Of a stretch of DNA of 36,814 nt, positions 4,640 through 25,740 are shown one piece after another. Location: positions 1-36,814 of the forward strand of contig JAAHGY010000009.1 of NCBI GenBank assembly GCA_010672345.1, written 5' to 3'. Every line of letters starts with the position of its first letter. Position 1 is the stretch's first letter. This stretch comes from Cyanothece sp. SIO2G6 (GTDB taxonomy: Bacteria; Cyanobacteriota; Cyanobacteriia; CAKZMO01). A program made the position numbers and the translations under genes. The notes beneath the pieces are model-generated. The model was given only the letters and a program-made list of their open reading frames with translations. It was not told the DNA's origin and did not search any database.

Positions 4640-4790
4640 CCATGTTCAGCGAGGGAAAGTCTGGTGCGATTCCAGCACTGTGCCGCAACTGTAATCAGAC
4701 GGTTTTCCGACAAGCCATCTGCAAGTCAGAACACCACAGCGAACCTTGTCCAATTTCATTCCCTGCGTTGCATGGGGACACGGATAAACA
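4640..4790 (+). promoter_or_regulatory. Cobalamin riboswitch
   Basis: The conserved core of the B12 aptamer is recognisable: GGGAA at 4653-4657, GGTGCGATTCC at 4664-4674, CTGTGCCGCAACTGTA at about 4679-4693, and the B12 box GCAAGTCAGAACACC at 4721-4735. It lies between the TPR gene and cbiX and would repress the cbiX-cbiET operon when adenosyl- or another cobalamin is plentiful. The outer boundaries are approximate. A long reading frame that begins at 4642 runs through it, but those bases are the aptamer, not coding sequence. The expression platform was not resolved; no clear terminator is seen, so control of translation is more likely. Confidence 0.9.
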
Positions 4791-4800
4791 AACACTACTT

Positions 4801-5847
4801 ATGTCTCAATTTAATCCTTTACTTTTACTGGGTCATGGCACCCGCGATGCCGATGGGCGACACGCTTTCCTGGAGTTTGCTGACAAGTTTCAATCCTATG
4901 ATCCCAGTCGGCCCGTGGTGCCCTGTTTTTTGGAACTGACTGAACCATCGGTCCAGGAGGGGATCGATCGCTGCATTGAACGGGGATACACCGATTTGAC
5001 TGTGTTGCCTGTCCTATTGTTTGCAGCCCGTCACAGCAAGTTTGACGTGACCAACGAACTCGATCGTGCCTGTGAACGTCATCCCACCCTCACGCTGCAC
5101 TATGGTCGCCACTTTGGGGTATCGCTGCGGTGGTTAGAACTGTGGCAACAACGGTTACAAAAGGCCGATCAAGCCAGTATGGTGCCCCGTGAGCAGACTG
5201 TGTTGCTGTTTGTGGGCCGGGGAGCCTCCGACCCCGATGCCAATGGTGATGTTTATAAGTTAGCCAGAATGCTATGGGAAGGCAGTGGCTATCTGGATTT
5301 GGAAGTGTGTTTTACCGGGATTACCCATCCTCGGATGGAGCGGGGATTTGAACGGGCACGGGCCTGGAATCCCGATCGCATCATCGTTATTCCCCACTTG
5401 TTGTTTGATGGGGTGTTGGCGAAACGGATTCATGCGATTGTGGCGGCGGAACAGGCGGCCCACCCCCAGATTGAAGTACAGACCCTGCCCGTCATTGGCA
5501 CCGATCCCATCTTGTTTGAGCTGATTCGCGATCGCGAACTCGAAGCTCAAAATGGCGCAGTGGTGATGAACTGTTACACCTGCAAATTCCGCCAAGCGTT
5601 AAGTGCTCAAGGTCATGGTCATCATCACCACCCTGATCATCACGCTAACCATACCCACAGCCATGCCCATGATCATCACGCTAACCATACCCACAGCCAT
5701 GCCCATGATCATCACCCCCATTCCCACTCCCCCACTCCCCCACTCCCCCACTCCCCCACTCCCCCATCTCCCAACCTTTACCACGGTATTCCCGATCTCT
5801 ATCCCGATGCTGATGAGTACCATCAACGGGCATGGCAAGTGCCTTAA
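4801..5847 (+). CDS. cbiX: Sirohydrochlorin cobaltochelatase CbiX
   Basis: Inserts Co2+ into sirohydrochlorin, the entry step of the early-cobalt B12 route, in the cytoplasm. The 348-residue protein has two fused CbiX-type halves: LLLLGHGTRDADGR near the N-terminus carries one catalytic histidine, ARHSKFDV another, and the second half starts about VLLFVGRGASDPDAN. After MNCYTCKFRQA comes a tail of about 45 residues dominated by His (HHHHPDHH, THSHAHDHH) and then by Ser-Pro-Thr, ending with NLYHGIPDLYPDADEYHQRAW. His-rich tails are known in CbiX and are thought to store metal. The tail is encoded by a perfect 36-bp tandem duplication and a CCCACTCC array. Start at 4801 is chosen because the upstream frame is riboswitch. 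The ribosome binding site is weak. The gene is 6 bases ahead of cbiET. Confidence 0.93.
   Translation: MSQFNPLLLLGHGTRDADGRHAFLEFADKFQSYDPSRPVVPCFLELTEPSVQEGIDRCIERGYTDLTVLPVLLFAARHSKFDVTNELDRACERHPTLTLHYGRHFGVSLRWLELWQQRLQKADQASMVPREQTVLLFVGRGASDPDANGDVYKLARMLWEGSGYLDLEVCFTGITHPRMERGFERARAWNPDRIIVIPHLLFDGVLAKRIHAIVAAEQAAHPQIEVQTLPVIGTDPILFELIRDRELEAQNGAVVMNCYTCKFRQALSAQGHGHHHHPDHHANHTHSHAHDHHANHTHSHAHDHHPHSHSPTPPLPHSPTPPSPNLYHGIPDLYPDADEYHQRAWQVP
5635..5706. repeat. Two perfect 36-bp tandem repeats in the cbiX His-rich tail
   Basis: Bases 5635-5670 and 5671-5706 are identical; the unit starts GATCATCACGCTAACC and encodes DHHANHTHSHAH. Directly after it, about 5716-5770, is a run of CCCACTCC-type repeats that encodes the Ser-Pro-Thr section. 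The same CCCACTCC repeat occurs near the dusA start, so it seems to be a dispersed repeat captured in coding sequence. Confidence 0.9.
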
Positions 5848-8483: not shown

Positions 8484-11400
8484 TTAGCCCAAAATAAAGT
8501 TTTGAGCTGTGAGCGTGTCCGCTTGGACACCGTTGAGAATCGCCAGGGTAGTAAATTCCGTCCCTGCCTCTGCTCCATCCGTGTCAACCCGAATTTCGGT
8601 TGCGCCGTCACTTTGGACCCAATCAACATAGGTCACAAGCTGAGCAAAGCCGTTGTCCGCCGTATAGATCCCACTGTTGAAAATACCCGTCAAGTCGAGT
8701 GCATCCTCGGCGGTCGAGAACCCGTTCACCGTATCAATCCCTTCATCAAGGCTGTTGAAGCGAATAATATCGTTGCCTTTGCCTGCCTTAATTTTGTCGT
8801 TGCCTTGCCCCCCAACGAGGATGTCGTTACCTGGACCTCCAATCAAATTGTCATTGCCTCGACCACCTAACAACTCGTCATTATTTCTACCACCAATGAG
8901 GCGATCGCGACCATCACCGCCCACGAGCAAGTCAGCACCGCCGCCCCCCTTCAGTACATCATTACCCGCCTCACCGTAGAGTTTGTCCTTGCCATTGCTA
9001 CCTCCCTGTTTGCCTGCAATCAGTAAATCATTGCCCTTGCCGCCTCTGAGGACATCACTCCCTGGCGTTCCCCGCATCACATCCCGTTGATTCGTGCCTT
9101 TGCGACGGATGCCTCTTCTGCCATTGTCACCTTTCCGATCGTTGCCATCAGGCCTAAAAGTATCGGGGACCGCTAGAATCCCTGTTTGCCAGGTTGTACT
9201 TGCGGCGGCAGATAGCCCATTGCCAGCTTCATCAGTGATATCGCTGACTTGAACCGTCAACTCATAGCGTCCCCCCGCTGCTGTCAGCGGGTCCAACCCC
9301 GATAAGGTCCAGGAAATCGCATTGCTAGAGGTTAAAGTTGCATCCAATAGAGACACCACAGTACCATCACGGGTTAGCAATATATCCCCCAAGTCAACAT
9401 TGCGGACGGCTTCACTAAATTGAAACTGAATTTCAGTTACAGGGGTATCCCGCAAATCAGGGATTATGGGAGCGATCGCCACAGTCGGTGCAATTTCATC
9501 AACTGGAGCATCGGGTTGTGGCTGTGATTGTGGCTGGGGTTGTGGCTGGGACTGGGGTTGCGGCTGGGGTTGGGGAACGGGTGCCACATCATCATTGGTA
9601 ATGGTTGCAATCCCTTGAGCTTGGGTGATAGTGGCCTGGGATGGGTTGGATAAAAGCACACTAAACTGCTCATCCAGTTCAACGTCCCCATCTCCATTGA
9701 CGGTCACATTAATGGTTTTACGGGTTTGCCCTGCTGCGAAGGTCAGGGTACCACTGGCTCCCACATAGTCGCCCGTTAGGGTTGTAGCCGAACTATCTTC
9801 AGTAGCGTAATCGACGGTGACTGCTTTGTCATAGCTTTCCGACAAGGTAATGGTAAAGCTGGCAGTGGTCGGACCACTATTGCCCTCGATTACTGATACG
9901 TTATCAATCGATAGGGTGGGCAAAGGTGTAGTGGCAAAACTCCAAACTGTTGAGTCCGTAAAGCCTGCGTAGTCGTTACTGGCTAGGTCGGCGATCGCCC
10001 CAGCATCTACCGTCAGGTAATAGCGCTCACCTCGTTCCAAGTCGCTGGTCGGATTAATAAATACTATGTCATTCGTGACACGCTCAGTACCAAGGGTAAC
10101 AAGGCTAGAGTTGGTCACATCTAGGGCTTCTACTAACACACCATCGGCAGTATAGAGACTAATATTACCCGTTTTGAGTTGTACGGTCTCGTCAAACACA
10201 ACACCAAGAAGGGCATTCTGCAACACAATGGCGTTGTTTCTGGGAATAAAAGTGATAACACTCGGTGCAGTCGTATCTGGGAAATCATTCTCAGTCACAT
10301 TGACTGAGATAGAATCAATCGTGAGCGCACCAGTATAAAAGCTATCGCCACTGGTGATGGCATGACTAATGGTGCTGCTATGGGGATTGCTTTCCTCATC
10401 CGTGTCATCAACAGCTTGCACATAGATGGTTTGAGCGGTCGTGTCTATGAGGCTGATACTGGCAGTGGTGCCATAGGTGGTCCCGTCCACACTGATGACT
10501 GTTTGACTGTCACTGACCGTTAAATCAATGGTGACAATGTCAGTGGGAACAGTATCGAGAGCAATGCGGTAGAAGTCTATTGCCCCACTTTCGCCGACAG
10601 TCGTGTTGCCGTTTGTCTCCGTGATCGTGACTCCAGCATTCTGGGTGGTAAAAGCCCAAGTGCTATTGCCAGTGATCCCGCCAAAGGCATTGCTTGAGGG
10701 AGATGTGTCCTCCAGTGTACCTGCATCAATCTCAACGTAGTAGCTCGTACCAGGGTTAAGATTGCTCGTTGGATCGATAGTGACAGTGGCCCCAGAAATA
10801 GTAACCGCACTATCAGTAATGGGAATGGTAGCAAATTCTACATTATTGCTATCTTTGATGATGACATTACCGGATGTGCCTTTTACTACATTTTCATCCA
10901 AGGTCATGACTAAATTGGATTCTACGGCGATCGCCGTTCCATTGTTGGCCGGACTCAACGTGGCAATCGCGGGAGCTGTCTGATCAACCGTCTCGAAATT
11001 CCAAGTTGAATTAGCTGATATTCCGGCAAACGGATTGCCAGCTAAATCCATGAAGGCCGTGGTGGGTATTTCCACATAATAGACGGTATCATCAGCCAAA
11101 TCTGTGGGTGGATTAATCGTGGCAACGGTCCCCCCGCCAGTCAGTGCAACTGTAGCTACATCGATTGTCGCAGCTATGGCATTGTCAGACAACGCTTTAA
11201 TCAGAATATTGCCACTGCCCAGCTGAATCGCTTCACTGAACGTGAGAGTCAAATCAGCATTGACAGCAACTTCTGTGGCATTATCGGCAGGGCCATAGGT
11301 CATGACAGTGGGAGCCGTGCTGTCTGCTGTGGTAAAGCGCCATGCAGTGTTACCAGAGAGCCCAGCAAACGGGTTGTTGGCTAAATCGGTAAAGGCTGTA

Positions 11401-13289
11401 TTGGGAATTTCAACATAGTACTCAGTGGTTTCGGCGAAATCGCTGGGTGGATCAATCGTAACGGTAGAGCCATTGATGGTAACGTTGCCTACCGGGATGC
11501 TTGCTACCTCTGTGTCACCATTCACGGTCTTGATTAAGATATTCCCAGTTCCAGCTTTAACTGTCTCGCTGAAGGTGAGACTCAAGGGTGCATCGCCTGC
11601 AACTGGAGTGGTATTGTCCACAGGGCTTCTAGCTGTTAGAGTTGGATTGGTCTGGTCAATGGTGGTAAAGTTCCATGCCATCGAGCCAGATAGGCCAGCA
11701 AATAGATTATCGGACAAGTCGGTAATCGCCCCAGCGGCAATTTCAATCGAGTAGGATGTGGCATCGTCTAAGTCAGCAGTGGGGTTGATGGTGACAGTGG
11801 AACCGCTAAACGTTACCTGGCTGCTGTCGGTGACTGCAATGATGATGGGTGTGGTGCCACCGGAAATGATAATATTGCCGTTGCCAGCCTTGATCGCTTC
11901 ATTAAAGGTGAGAGTCAAATCGGCAGATGGCAGAACATCGGTCGCGTCATCATTGGGGGTGAGGGGATTTGATGCGGTGAGTAATGGATCTGTGGTGTCT
12001 GGGGCATTTTCGGTTCTAAAACTCCAGGAGATGGTGTCACCAATGCCCACATAGTTGTTGCCTGCGATGTCCTGGATGGCTCCATCGGTAATTTGGATGT
12101 AATAATCCGTTGCGTAGGATAAGGGATTGGTGGGGTTAATGGTCACAATGTTGTTATTCACTGTGACTTGGGCCGTGGTAACGTCGATCGCTTCAACCAT
12201 GGACCCGCCACTTTCATAAATGGTGATGGTACCTGTGGCCGTTTTGACATCTTCCGTGAAGGTGAGGGTGAGGTTGTCATTGCGACCCGCGTTGGTGGCA
12301 TCGTCGGTGGGACTGAGGGTGGGATTAGCAGGCGCGACTGTATCGGATGGCGCGGCGGTTGCAAAGTTCCAGGTTGTGTTGTCATCAATTCCGGTATAGT
12401 TATTGCCGGACAGATCTCTAAAGGCTCCACTAGCGATTTGAACGTAGTAAGCCCCGCCTTTGGGAAGGTCATTAGTCAAATCAATGGTGACGGTAGCCCC
12501 GCTGACACCGACTTGGTTGCTGGTGACATCAATGGTGTCTACTGTAGTCCCGCTACTATCTTTGATATAGATATTGCCTGTGCCTTTTGCGACAGGCTCA
12601 TTAAAGCCAATGACGAGGGCTTCCCCTGCTGCCACCTCTGTTGCTCCATCAACTGGGGTCAATGAGATGGCGGTGGGGGCGGTGGTATCGGCTCCCCCTG
12701 TGATCGTGAATGTACCCGTAAAGGTTTGGAGGGCGGTGTTATCGCCTGTCCAGTTGGCGCTGTTGTTGAGGGCGAGCAAGAGGGTGGCGCGATCGCCTGA
12801 GAGCGGACCATTGTATTTGGCATTATCCACCTCATCAATCGATACAGCACTGATCCCATTGGTCAGACCTTGGGGACGAGCTGATGTATTCGGAGACACA
12901 GTCACACCATCCCAATAAGGATTAATCCCGTCTTGATTATCGTTATTAATTGCAGCAATAAATGTTGGAGCAACATCAGTATCCTGGTAAGCCAGGATTT
13001 GATCGCCCCCTGTGGACAAATCAAAGAGACTGGTATTAATGCTGCCGACCGATGCGGTTGATCCTGCAACCGTGATGACAGTACCTGCCGCAACCACTCC
13101 AGTGGCAACCCAGGTGATAGAACCCTCTCCAGTTGCATTGGAAAAGCCGGAATTGTCACTGAGCCAACCCCGATCAGTGAAGTGAATCTCTTCGTTAGCT
13201 GCAATCTCGACAAGGGTAACGAACGCAAAACGGTTGGGTTCATCAGCGTTGTATTCGACAAACCCGATATCTCCTGGGTTAAGGCTCAT
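8484..13289 (-). CDS. Giant Ig-like / Calx-beta / RTX calcium-binding protein
   Basis: A 1601-residue extracellular protein. Residues 1-200 form a domain starting MSLNPGDIGFVEYNADEPN, seen at the head of other cyanobacterial RTX proteins. From about 200 to 1120 come seven Big_5-type Ig-like domains of 105-115 residues, each opening with a D-x-T-x-P sentence (for example SPVDNTTPVAGDAPLSLTF) and closing with a G-x-x-x-W-x-F strand; a different module lies at about 880-985. A Calx-beta domain (about 1120-1235) is followed by a Pro-Gln linker (about 1237-1263), one more divergent Ig-like domain, and RTX nonapeptides such as GGRGNDNLIGGPGND at about 1405-1515. The C-terminus (about 1530-1601) matches type I secretion targets. 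There is no signal peptide, which agrees with type I secretion. AAGGAG precedes the ATG. Probably an adhesin or matrix protein; the transporter genes are not in the window. Confidence 0.9.
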   Translation of the reverse strand: MSLNPGDIGFVEYNADEPNRFAFVTLVEIAANEEIHFTDRGWLSDNSGFSNATGEGSITWVATGVVAAGTVITVAGSTASVGSINTSLFDLSTGGDQILAYQDTDVAPTFIAAINNDNQDGINPYWDGVTVSPNTSARPQGLTNGISAVSIDEVDNAKYNGPLSGDRATLLLALNNSANWTGDNTALQTFTGTFTITGGADTTAPTAISLTPVDGATEVAAGEALVIGFNEPVAKGTGNIYIKDSSGTTVDTIDVTSNQVGVSGATVTIDLTNDLPKGGAYYVQIASGAFRDLSGNNYTGIDDNTTWNFATAAPSDTVAPANPTLSPTDDATNAGRNDNLTLTFTEDVKTATGTITIYESGGSMVEAIDVTTAQVTVNNNIVTINPTNPLSYATDYYIQITDGAIQDIAGNNYVGIGDTISWSFRTENAPDTTDPLLTASNPLTPNDDATDVLPSADLTLTFNEAIKAGNGNIIISGGTTPIIIAVTDSSQVTFSGSTVTINPTADLDDATSYSIEIAAGAITDLSDNLFAGLSGSMAWNFTTIDQTNPTLTARSPVDNTTPVAGDAPLSLTFSETVKAGTGNILIKTVNGDTEVASIPVGNVTINGSTVTIDPPSDFAETTEYYVEIPNTAFTDLANNPFAGLSGNTAWRFTTADSTAPTVMTYGPADNATEVAVNADLTLTFSEAIQLGSGNILIKALSDNAIAATIDVATVALTGGGTVATINPPTDLADDTVYYVEIPTTAFMDLAGNPFAGISANSTWNFETVDQTAPAIATLSPANNGTAIAVESNLVMTLDENVVKGTSGNVIIKDSNNVEFATIPITDSAVTISGATVTIDPTSNLNPGTSYYVEIDAGTLEDTSPSSNAFGGITGNSTWAFTTQNAGVTITETNGNTTVGESGAIDFYRIALDTVPTDIVTIDLTVSDSQTVISVDGTTYGTTASISLIDTTAQTIYVQAVDDTDEESNPHSSTISHAITSGDSFYTGALTIDSISVNVTENDFPDTTAPSVITFIPRNNAIVLQNALLGVVFDETVQLKTGNISLYTADGVLVEALDVTNSSLVTLGTERVTNDIVFINPTSDLERGERYYLTVDAGAIADLASNDYAGFTDSTVWSFATTPLPTLSIDNVSVIEGNSGPTTASFTITLSESYDKAVTVDYATEDSSATTLTGDYVGASGTLTFAAGQTRKTINVTVNGDGDVELDEQFSVLLSNPSQATITQAQGIATITNDDVAPVPQPQPQPQSQPQPQPQSQPQPDAPVDEIAPTVAIAPIIPDLRDTPVTEIQFQFSEAVRNVDLGDILLTRDGTVVSLLDATLTSSNAISWTLSGLDPLTAAGGRYELTVQVSDITDEAGNGLSAAASTTWQTGILAVPDTFRPDGNDRKGDNGRRGIRRKGTNQRDVMRGTPGSDVLRGGKGNDLLIAGKQGGSNGKDKLYGEAGNDVLKGGGGADLLVGGDGRDRLIGGRNNDELLGGRGNDNLIGGPGNDILVGGQGNDKIKAGKGNDIIRFNSLDEGIDTVNGFSTAEDALDLTGIFNSGIYTADNGFAQLVTYVDWVQSDGATEIRVDTDGAEAGTEFTTLAILNGVQADTLTAQNFILG

Positions 13290-23460: not shown

Positions 23461-24492
23461 ATGACGGATTCTGAGCCGCAGCTTGACGCATCACACCATG
23501 CCACATCACCGACTGACACATCGTTGCAGACGAGTGCATCTCTGCCACTCCATGCCGATATTTGGCAGGAGACGTTGGGATGGTGTCCAAGCGATCGCCA
23601 ACAACAGCAGTTTCAGCGTCTCTACCACCAGATTTGTGTTGGCAACCAATCGCTCAATCTGACTCGGATCACCCAAGCCGACGAGTTTTGGGAAAAGCAC
23701 CTGTGGGATTCCCTCAGCGGTATTCATTTTCTGTTGACTGAGAACGCTGATGAGAATAGCACTGAGCAGGCGAATAGTCCGGTCACTGATCAGCCCGATG
23801 GTGCAAGTCATCAGCCAGGGAGCCAGGGAGATAATCCGGCGGACAATCAAACTGTCAATCAGGAAGATAACCTGGTCGATCATCAAGCCGTCGATCGTGA
23901 AGATTGTGAAGATAACCTGGTCGATCATCAAACTATCGATCAGGCCAATAAGCTAGTCAGTCATCAAACCATCGATCAGGAGATTAAGCGAGTATTGGAT
24001 ATTGGCACTGGGGCTGGATTTCCAGGGTTGCCCGTGGCGATCGCTCGTCCTTCCTGGCAAATCACCCTGTTGGATTCCACTCGCAAAAAGATCGCTTTTA
24101 TCGATAGCATTCTACCGAAAATAGAGTTAACCAATGTTCACACGTTTACCCACCGAGCCGAAACCCTAGGCCGCAATTCCCACCATCGCTACCAGTACGA
24201 CTTGGTGCTCGTCCGTGCCGTTGCTGCTGCCACTGTTTGTGCCGAGTATGCGTTACCATTTCTCAAAGTTGGTGGTCAAGGAGTCCTGTACCGGGGGCGC
24301 TGGACCGCAGCCGAGGAAGAAAGTCTCCTCTATGCCCTAGACCTACTGGGCGGCACTATTGAGGCTATCTACGAATGGGAAACCCCCTTGAGCCAAGGCG
24401 ATCGCCACTGTATCATCATCCGCAAAATTGAGAAAACCCCCCGCTTCTTCCCCCGCGATGTCGGAGTTCCGGCTAAAGATCCCCTGGCTTAA
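23461..24492 (+). CDS. rsmG: 16S rRNA (guanine527-N7)-methyltransferase RsmG with a repetitive insertion
   Basis: Methylates G527 of 16S rRNA. At 343 residues it is about 100 longer than most RsmG proteins. Residues about 35-93 (LGWCPSDRQQQQF, NQSLNLTRIT, FWEKHLWDSLSG) and about 178-330 (RVLDIGTGAGFPGLPVAIA, RKKIAFIDSI, DLVLVRAVA, GGQGVLYRG) match the family end to end. Between them, roughly residues 95-176, is an Asp/Asn/Gln-rich insert with imperfect repeats of the type NLVDHQTIDQ. It sits in the loop just before the SAM-binding glycine motif. About 35 extra residues also precede the first conserved helix. The catalytic core is unbroken, so the enzyme is probably active. Start at 23461 keeps the whole domain; no strong ribosome binding site is seen. 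Confidence 0.9.
   Translation: MTDSEPQLDASHHATSPTDTSLQTSASLPLHADIWQETLGWCPSDRQQQQFQRLYHQICVGNQSLNLTRITQADEFWEKHLWDSLSGIHFLLTENADENSTEQANSPVTDQPDGASHQPGSQGDNPADNQTVNQEDNLVDHQAVDREDCEDNLVDHQTIDQANKLVSHQTIDQEIKRVLDIGTGAGFPGLPVAIARPSWQITLLDSTRKKIAFIDSILPKIELTNVHTFTHRAETLGRNSHHRYQYDLVLVRAVAAATVCAEYALPFLKVGGQGVLYRGRWTAAEEESLLYALDLLGGTIEAIYEWETPLSQGDRHCIIIRKIEKTPRFFPRDVGVPAKDPLA
23743..23985 (+). repeat. Repeat-bearing insertion inside rsmG
   Basis: This in-frame segment has no counterpart in normal RsmG. GATAACCTGGTCGATCATCA occurs twice exactly (from 23867 and from 23922), and related GATCATCA/GATCAG units recur through the stretch. It encodes only D, N, Q, H, V and similar polar residues, with no hydrophobic core, so it should be a solvent-exposed disordered loop. 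Boundaries are approximate. Confidence 0.75.
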
Positions 24493-24495
24493 TGA

Positions 24496-24558
24496 AAGAA
24501 CGAAGAACGAAGATTGAAGAACGAAGAACGAAGATTGAAGAACGAAGAACGAAGACTG
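24496..24558. repeat. Three 21-bp tandem repeats between rsmG and dusA
   Basis: The unit AAGAACGAAGAACGAAGATTG occurs three times from four bases after the rsmG stop, the last with one mismatch, followed by a partial fourth. It is itself made of the 7-mer GAAGAAC and relatives, a class of short tandem repeat common between cyanobacterial genes. Confidence 0.9.
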
Positions 24559-24593
24559 AAGAACGAGGAACTCCCTCCTGCTTCAATTGCTAA

Positions 24594-24648
24594 CTCCCCC
24601 ACTCCCCACTCCCCCACTCTCCATTCCCCCACTCTCCACTCCCCCACC
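24594..24648. repeat. CCCACTCC-type repeat array before dusA
   Basis: Alternating CTCCCCCACTC and CTCCATTCCC units end exactly at the chosen dusA ATG. A third repeat type (CCAAAATCCAAAA) at about 24672-24699 falls inside the first codons. The same CCCACTCC repeat encodes part of the CbiX tail at about 5716-5770. Confidence 0.8.
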
Positions 24649-25740
24649 ATGACCACCACCCCTACCTCTGATCCAAAATCGAAAATCCAAAATCCAAAAG
24701 TCCCACTGCCCCACTTCCCTCTCAGTGTTGCTCCCATGATGGACCGCACCGATCGCCATTTTCGCTATTTCATGCGGCAAATCACTCAGCGGACGTTGCT
24801 GTACACCGAGATGGTCACAAGTGCCGCAATTATTTACGGGGTGTGTCGGGAACGGGATGCAGAGAAACGCGATCGCCTCCTGGGATTTGATCCGGCTGAA
24901 AAGCCGCTGGTGCTACAAATTGGTGGTGATAATCCCCAGGATTTGGCAACCTGTGCCAGAGTAGCGGCGGATATGGGTTATGACGAGGTGAATCTGAATG
25001 TGGGCTGTCCCAGTGATCGCGTCCAGAGTGGTAATTTTGGCGCATGTCTGATGGCCCAGCCCCAGCGGGTGGCGGATTGTGTGGCTGCCATGCAGAATGC
25101 GGTATCGATTCCGGTGACCGTGAAGCATCGGATTGGTATTGATCAGCGCGATCGCTACGAAGATTTGGTAGATTTTGTCCAAACTGTTGCGGCGGCTGGA
25201 TGTCGGCGCTTCAGTGTTCACGCTCGTAAAGCTTGGTTGCAAGGGCTGAGTCCCAAAGATAACCGCACCATTCCGCCCCTCCGTTACGCTGACGTGCATC
25301 GGTTAAAGCAGGAGTTTCCCCATCTCTGGATTGAGATTAACGGAGGATTCACGAGTTTGGCTCAAGTCAAGTCCCAGCTACACCGGGTGGATGCAGTGAT
25401 GATTGGTCGGGCTGCCTATGATCACCCTTATTTATTTGCGCCCGTCGATCGGGAATTCTTTGGTGACGAAAATCCTCCGGTGCAAAACCGTCATCAAGTG
25501 GTGGAGCAAATGTTGCCCTATATTGCCCACTGGACGAAGCGGGGGTTAAAACTACACAAAATCACTCGCCACATGTTGCAATTGTTTCATCACCAACCGG
25601 GTAGCCGTGCTTGGAAGAGGCATTTGACAGAACAGTCCTGCAAGCCAGACGCAGACGCGGAGATTGTGCAAGAGGCATTGTCTTTGGTGGCCCAGGCGGA
25701 AACTAAAACTGCTGAGTTCGCACGGGTCGAGGTAACGTGA
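24649..25740 (+). CDS. dusA: tRNA-dihydrouridine synthase A
   Basis: Flavin-dependent reduction of uridine (positions 20/20a) in tRNA. The TIM-barrel domain starts at FPLSVAPMMDRTDRHFRYF (about residues 23-41) and includes LLYTEMVTSAAIIYG (about 50-64), LQIGGDNPQDLA (about 88-99), NLNVGCPSDRVQSGNFGACL (about 111-130, with the catalytic Cys in GCPS), VKHRIGID, SVHARKAWLQGLSPKDNR and EINGGFTS. These are hallmarks of DusA rather than DusB or DusC. The start at 24649 gives a 22-residue leader (MTTTPTSDPKSKIQ...) encoded partly by an intergenic-type repeat; the frame remains open upstream through more repeats, and no ribosome binding site is seen at any candidate. Total length 363 residues, normal to slightly long. 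Confidence 0.93.
   Translation: MTTTPTSDPKSKIQNPKVPLPHFPLSVAPMMDRTDRHFRYFMRQITQRTLLYTEMVTSAAIIYGVCRERDAEKRDRLLGFDPAEKPLVLQIGGDNPQDLATCARVAADMGYDEVNLNVGCPSDRVQSGNFGACLMAQPQRVADCVAAMQNAVSIPVTVKHRIGIDQRDRYEDLVDFVQTVAAAGCRRFSVHARKAWLQGLSPKDNRTIPPLRYADVHRLKQEFPHLWIEINGGFTSLAQVKSQLHRVDAVMIGRAAYDHPYLFAPVDREFFGDENPPVQNRHQVVEQMLPYIAHWTKRGLKLHKITRHMLQLFHHQPGSRAWKRHLTEQSCKPDADAEIVQEALSLVAQAETKTAEFARVEVT

What the first reader, a model, noticed from the sequence alone, without database searches (positions are those of the whole stretch)
23743..23985. Repetitive insertion in the core of RsmG, next to the SAM site
About 80 polar residues with a repeated NLVDHQxxD pattern are inserted in the loop before the VLDIGTGAGFPG motif of a conserved rRNA methyltransferase, without breaking the frame. 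The DNA repeats are exact over 20 bases, so growth is recent. Insertions in housekeeping proteins by protein-coding repeats are known in a few bacteria, but I know of none in RsmG. Loss of RsmG gives streptomycin resistance, so its length variation could be physiologically relevant.
Basis: partly seen in the sequence, partly recalled or inferred. Interest (0 to 1): 0.6.

Follow-up and report, generated by a model that had tools for sequence, protein, structure and literature searches.

The report
Repeat-grown floppy loop in RsmG
A conserved ribosome-modifying enzyme in this cyanobacterium carries about 80 extra residues in a floppy surface loop, grown by in-frame copying of a 36-base unit; the same loop has grown independently with unrelated repeats in many cyanobacteria, so this is an unusually large case of a loop that tolerates extra sequence, not a new domain.

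Summary
ORF 23461-24492 is an intact RsmG (TIGR00138, above cut-off; the only copy in the genome). Its loop between helix KHLWDSL and strand beta-1 (VLDIGTGAGFPG) is 92 aa, about 77-79 aa longer than in solved homologues. Its 3' half (23827-23993) is a degenerate in-frame 36-bp tandem array; the best two copies share 24 exact bases (0 of 2000 codon shuffles reach this). The unit occurs nowhere else in the 7.0 Mb genome, so it is a local duplication, not a mobile element. AlphaFold gives a confident core and a structureless loop (pLDDT about 50). No relative shares the insert; the nearest has a 20-aa loop.

Length is 12-92 aa, repeat-bearing loops need at least 10 changes on an RsmG core tree, and the inserts are unrelated: heptamer or octamer arrays, 15-24-bp arrays, and twice a dispersed palindrome. 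Most likely it is tolerated drift in a disordered loop with catalysis kept. The streptomycin link is weak here, because 36-bp steps keep the frame. In species with heptamer arrays a 7-base slip would break the gene; that contingency-locus idea is untested.

The parts
23461..24492 (+). rsmG (gidB), 16S rRNA (guanine-527-N7)-methyltransferase, 343 aa, the only copy in the genome
   Evidence: TIGR00138 149.7 bits vs cut-off 99.5; Pfam GidB 154 bits; one locus in G000; fold matches 1xdz and the 3g88/3g8a/3g8b entries
23716..23991 (+). Variable loop of RsmG between helix KHLWDSL and strand beta-1, 92 aa here; 12-81 aa in the other cyanobacterial loci parsed
   Evidence: Loop survey; model has no secondary structure for residues 93-176, pLDDT 50-63 over residues 101-170
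23743..23826 (+). 5' part of the insert, polar, possibly an old degraded repeat copy
   Evidence: 23760-23795 matches 23934-23969 at 23/36, about the 99th percentile of codon-shuffled controls; weak
23827..23862 (+). 36-bp unit 1, GDNPADNQTVNQ
   Evidence: 71% to the reference copy over 34 nt; translation
23863..23898 (+). 36-bp unit 2, EDNLVDHQAVDR (reference copy)
23899..23907 (+). 9-bp part-copy GAAGATTGT (EDC) that turns the 36-bp spacing into 45
   Evidence: start spacing 36, 45, 36; sequence
23908..23943 (+). 36-bp unit 3, EDNLVDHQTIDQ, sharing 24 exact bases with unit 2
   Evidence: 91% to the reference copy; exact 24-mer, 0 of 2000 shuffles
23944..23979 (+). 36-bp unit 4, ANKLVSHQTIDQ
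   Evidence: 74% to the reference copy
23980..23993 (+). 3' edge of the array, running into the native flank of strand beta-1 (EIKR then VLDIG)
   Evidence: Tandem Repeats Finder extends the 36-bp period to 23993

Best explanation
The RsmG loop between the last N-terminal helix and strand beta-1 is a surface-exposed disordered loop that tolerates extra length. In this genome a 36-bp (12-codon) stretch in front of strand beta-1 was duplicated in tandem several times by slippage or recombination between local repeats (inferred). Because 36 and the 9-bp partial step are multiples of three, the frame was kept and the enzyme core still folds (core intact: shown; activity: inferred). The inserted peptide is most likely unselected for sequence and kept only as long as it stays polar, stop-free and in frame. 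It is one, rather large, instance of a recurrent process: the same loop has been enlarged independently in many cyanobacteria by whatever repeat each genome had to hand.
For: Degenerate in-frame 36-bp array with a 24-nt exact repeat. The unit exists nowhere else in the genome. The core keeps the residues invariant across 49 RsmG (W35, N66-I70, E75-S84, D180-G189 and others), with pLDDT mostly above 90 and PDB matches to RsmG; the loop has pLDDT about 50 and no secondary structure. Nearest relatives lack the insert: L058/L060 have 20-aa loops and the same-family genome G001 has 42 aa of unrelated sequence. Loop length varies from 12 to 92 aa; loops of at least 40 aa need 12 changes and repeat-bearing loops 10 changes on a tree of the core. 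Tandem arrays: 19 in 8.1 kb of loop DNA vs 20 in 354.6 kb of other coding DNA in the same loci, and 1 locus of 123 with an array in the folded RsmG core. Sister comparisons show in-frame growth: L077 has two octamer arrays each 24 nt longer than in L081/L094; L035 has a palindrome plus a duplicated flank absent from L071.
Against: Synonymous differences between units exceed non-synonymous ones per site in five of six comparisons (for example pS 0.60 vs pN 0.26), which could mean weak constraint on the peptide, though each comparison has only about 7 synonymous sites. The 5' part of the insert is not clearly repeat-derived. No strain-level or expression data exist here. The top-80 list is enriched in long loops, so the fold-enrichment of arrays is an overestimate: in the unbiased sample only 2 of 45 parsed loci carry a loop array.
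Confidence: 0.8

Rival explanations
1. The insert is a functional disordered segment (for example a docking peptide for another protein, the 30S subunit or a chaperone) whose repeated NLVDHQxxD motif is selected for.
For: Units 2 and 3 keep EDNLVDHQ exactly at the DNA level; pS exceeds pN in five of six unit pairs; the repeat is polar and acidic.
Against: No relative has the motif; the loops of relatives are unrelated in sequence and often short. Units 1 and 4 have lost the motif in part (GDNPADNQ, ANKLVSHQ). The exact stretch also keeps synonymous positions, as expected from recent duplication rather than selection.
Confidence: 0.12
2. The insert is a dispersed mobile or palindromic element inserted in frame, like the Rickettsia palindromic elements.
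For: That kind of event does occur in this very loop in other species: the palindrome TTCGGCGTGAGCGCTCAGYCGAAC, dispersed in their genomes, sits in the loop of L032 and L035.
Against: In this genome the unit is found only here (best outside hit E 0.126), the palindrome has 0 copies, and no inverted repeat of 12 nt or more is present in the gene.
Confidence: 0.04
3. Sequence-level artefact: misassembly, or a nucleic-acid-level element (RNA structure) that only happens to be translated.
For: The genome is a 1148-contig draft; short tandem arrays can be collapsed or expanded in assembly.
Against: The copies are diverged and the span is about 170 bp, so reads can anchor it; the frame is kept on both sides; folding as RNA gives z = -1.0, with 28 of 200 shuffles folding as well.
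Confidence: 0.04

Closest known systems
RsmG / GidB (TIGR00138; 1xdz, 3g88/3g8a/3g8b, 1jsx, 7cfe)
   Same: Same fold, motifs and invariant residues; a true RsmG
   Different: Loop before strand beta-1 is about 77-79 aa longer than in B. subtilis and T. thermophilus RsmG
Tandem repeats in intrinsically disordered regions (census, PMC7230257)
   Same: Duplication-born, polar, disorder-promoting residues, disordered in the model
   Different: Lies inside a conserved single-domain enzyme, not at a protein end, where that census says repeats are often located
Rickettsia palindromic elements inserted in frame in genes (PMC10969869)
   Same: In-frame enlargement of unrelated housekeeping proteins; the L032/L035 palindrome cases in this loop resemble it
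   Different: The window's repeat is not palindromic and not dispersed
Cyanobacterial short tandemly repeated repetitive (STRR) heptamers, known from intergenic DNA, the rnpB gene and the tRNA-Leu intron (from memory)
   Same: The same loop hosts such arrays in other species (L031, L033, L042, L049, L052); RNA-gene loops and this protein loop are both places where extra length is tolerated
   Different: The window's unit is 36 bp, frame-neutral and unique; STRR units are 7 bp and frame-sensitive

Membership tests
RsmG (16S rRNA G527 methyltransferase) | Score above the curated cut-off of the equivalog model | tested here: met
   TIGR00138 149.7 bits vs 99.5
RsmG (16S rRNA G527 methyltransferase) | Conserved core residues and Rossmann methyltransferase fold | tested here: met
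   All invariant columns of 49 homologues present; Foldseek 1xdz E 1.3e-23, TMt 0.92
RsmG (16S rRNA G527 methyltransferase) | Methylates G527 of 16S rRNA | not testable with these tools
   Needs primer extension or mass spectrometry
Tandem repeat in a disordered region | Head-to-tail copies beyond chance | tested here: met
Tandem repeat in a disordered region | No predicted structure | tested here: met
   pLDDT about 50, no helix or strand for residues 93-176
Rickettsia-palindromic-element-like coding repeat | Dispersed copies elsewhere in the genome | tested here: not met
   Own-genome DNA and pattern searches
Rickettsia-palindromic-element-like coding repeat | Palindromic unit | tested here: not met
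   No inverted repeat of 12 nt or more in the gene
STRR heptamer array | 7-bp unit | tested here: not met
   Period 36; heptamer arrays do occur just downstream, 24496-24699

The most novel reading that the evidence does not exclude
In cyanobacteria whose RsmG loop carries in-frame heptamer arrays (L031, L033, L042, L049, L052), gain or loss of a single 7-bp unit would shift the frame and switch off G527 methylation reversibly. The RsmG loop would then be a contingency locus tuning translation fidelity and aminoglycoside response. The window's 36-bp array would be the frame-neutral, locked form of the same hotspot.
Probability: 0.06. Interest if true: 0.75.

Novelty: new member of a known kind. 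Interest (0 to 1): 0.4.

Why it matters
It shows a universally conserved rRNA methyltransferase with one loop that repeatedly absorbs tandem arrays and even a dispersed palindrome without frame loss. That gives a natural series of insertions for asking how much extra length an rRNA-modifying enzyme tolerates. It also warns that RsmG alignments and domain coordinates in cyanobacteria are unreliable over this loop: the Pfam and TIGR00138 matches split and start inside the insert here. It makes one direct test possible: whether 7-bp arrays inside rsmG slip and switch the gene.

Tried and rejected
Dispersed coding repeat: rejected, no second copy in the genome. Old conserved domain: rejected, loops of relatives are unrelated and mostly short. 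RNA structure in the insert: z = -1.0, not significant. Unit-to-unit dN/dS: too few sites to decide. Pseudogene: rejected, open frame, invariant residues kept, only copy. Literature: no paper in the held library joins gidB, tandem repeat and cyanobacteria; RsmG with insertion and cyanobacteria gave one unrelated paper. The library lacks most subscription papers, so this is weak evidence of novelty. The reversed-pattern control is not a valid control, because a reversed CTCAAAA array is the same array in another phase; only the zero in G000 and the large counts elsewhere are used.

Full report
1. What is there. The ORF at 23461-24492 (+) encodes 343 aa without interruption and is RsmG: TIGR00138 149.7 bits against a cut-off of 99.5, Pfam GidB 154 bits. 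It is the only RsmG locus in the 7.03 Mb draft genome. The loop between the end of helix KHLWDSL (residue 85) and strand beta-1 (V178-L179-D180-I181-G182) is 92 aa, nt 23716-23991. In the alignments with solved structures the two conserved halves are 84 query residues apart where B. subtilis 1xdz has 5 and T. thermophilus 3g88 has 7, so 77-79 residues are extra.

2. The repeat. Four in-frame 36-bp units lie at 23827, 23863, 23908 and 23944, with a 9-bp part-copy between the second and third (start spacings 36, 45, 36). Tandem Repeats Finder follows the period up to 23993, the edge of strand beta-1. The longest exact match is 24 nt; 2000 codon shuffles of the insert never exceed 15. The other units are only 71-74% like the reference, so the array has mixed ages: 'recent' holds for one duplication. 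The first about 84 nt of the insert show only one borderline match to the array (23/36; null 99th percentile 22, maximum 24).

3. Not a dispersed element. A 22-bp unit pattern with up to 3 mismatches hits only two places in rsmG and one 3-mismatch site elsewhere. A BLAST of the insert against the whole genome gives nothing outside rsmG better than E = 0.126. The repeat was therefore made in place. No inverted repeat of 12 nt or more is present and the RNA does not fold better than shuffles (z = -1.0).

4. Structure. An AlphaFold2 model from an alignment of 49 sequences (the window protein and 48 homologues translated from loci fetched here) has mean pLDDT 81. The core is mostly above 90 with the expected methyltransferase order of helices and strands. 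Residues 93-176 have no secondary structure, and pLDDT is 50-63 over residues 101-170. The model matches RsmG structures 1xdz and the T. thermophilus AdoMet complexes. All columns invariant in the 49 sequences are intact in the window protein. The insert enters before beta-1. In Rossmann methyltransferases AdoMet is held by the loop after that strand (general knowledge), so the insert is next to the SAM motif in sequence but at the other end of the strand in space (inferred; distance not measured).

5. Relatives. In an even sample of 59 genomes from 29 families, 45 loops could be parsed: median 18 aa, next-longest 44. The other 14 are short, with N- and C-terminal tblastn pieces 15-57 nt apart. 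The window's 92 aa is the longest seen in any set, including 78 parsed loci from the genome-contig scan (12-81 aa over all other loci parsed). That scan ranks loci with long loops higher, because their tblastn pieces join, so it must not be used for frequencies. The nearest relatives by path are L058 and L060 (Leptolyngbya sp. PCC 7375, Adonisia turfae), each with 20 aa. The only same-family genome, G001, has 42 aa without similarity to the repeat.

6. A recurrent growth site. The long loops of other species are unrelated to each other and are often made of repeats: CAGAAGT and CTCAAAA heptamers (L031; CTCAAAA also in L033), AGCAGTC (L042), AATTCAA plus CCCTCACT (L052), GGAGATGG and CACCCCAC octamers (L077), 15-bp units (L045, L046), a 24-bp unit (L041). 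On a tree of the RsmG core without the loop, repeat-bearing loops require at least 10 changes and loops of 40 aa or more at least 12 (quick tree, many weak forks). Counting tandem arrays in the same loci gives 19 in 8.1 kb of loop DNA and 20 in 354.6 kb of other coding DNA. The ratio is inflated by the bias named above. In the unbiased sample 2 of 45 parsed loci have a loop array, and over all 123 parsed loci only one has an array in the folded core.

7. Two sister comparisons show how growth happens. In Fischerella, L077 differs from L081 and L094 by two octamer arrays, each 24 nt longer, that is three units and a whole number of codons. In L035 compared with L071, the palindrome GTTCGGCTGAGCGCTCACGCCGAAG with a copy of its flank CCCGACATCCGACACC is present in one and absent from the other. 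The same palindrome sits in the loop of L032 and is dispersed in seven of eleven genomes searched, but absent from the window's genome. CTCAAAA arrays occur in tens of copies in the genomes of L031, L033 and L042, none in G000. The loop thus accepts repeats of quite different origin.

8. Mechanism. Shown: in-frame array, local origin, intact core, loop predicted unstructured, independent growth elsewhere. Inferred: slippage or recombination made the copies; the peptide is tolerated rather than needed; the enzyme is active. Unit comparisons (pS above pN in five of six pairs, about 7 synonymous sites each) cannot separate weak constraint from drift.

9. The streptomycin idea. Loss of RsmG gives low-level streptomycin resistance (established knowledge). 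Here a change of one unit leaves the frame intact, so no on-off switching is expected. In the species with heptamer arrays a 7-bp slip would break the frame. Of the seven heptamers CAGAAGT, CTCAAAA, CAGTCAG, AGCAGTC, CTCCTCT, CCTCATC and AATTCAA, all lack stops in the sense direction (a heptamer array passes through all three frames) and six have a stop in the antisense direction, which is what a coding filter would leave. Whether they slip in vivo is unknown.

10. Verdict. Real, lineage-specific and large, but of a known kind: tandem-repeat growth in a disordered loop. The more interesting part is that one loop of RsmG is a repeat-accepting site across cyanobacteria, which I found no report of in the held library.

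Noticed in passing
window 5634-5772: cbiX-like gene (4642-5847, Pfam CbiX) carries an exact 36-bp x 2.3 tandem repeat plus an 8-bp array near its end, coding a histidine-rich tail (HHHHPDHHANHTHSHAHDHHANHTHSHAH).
   Followed up: partly
window 24496-24699: Heptamer-type arrays (AAGAACG, CCCCACT, ATCCAAA) fill the rsmG-dusA gap and run in frame into the N-terminus of dusA; the likely start is ATG 24649 rather than TTG 24514, and even then SKIQNPK is coded by the ATCCAAA array.
   Followed up: partly
L032 and L035 (RsmG loops): A dispersed cyanobacterial palindrome (TTCGGCGTGAGCGCTCAGYCGAAC) is translated inside rsmG in two species; 3-22 copies in each of seven genomes searched, a possible analogue of Rickettsia palindromic elements.
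   Followed up: partly
L155 (G007:C28:22700-24100): rsmG of G007 changes frame within the C-terminal domain, about residues 207-211 of the window protein, and that genome has a second partial copy at C26: pseudogene, programmed shift or assembly error.
   Followed up: no
L093:2327-2498: About 25 copies of AATTACC lie directly upstream of rsmG in an open frame with it.
   Followed up: no
window 8484-13289 (-): 1601-aa protein with Big_5 Ig-like domains, Calx-beta and RTX nonapeptide repeats; short 12- and 18-bp arrays at 9516-9568.
   Followed up: no
L104:3765-4522 and L106:3421-4204: 135-bp coding tandem repeats (3.9 and 5.8 copies) in a gene near rsmG in two Nostoc genomes.
   Followed up: no
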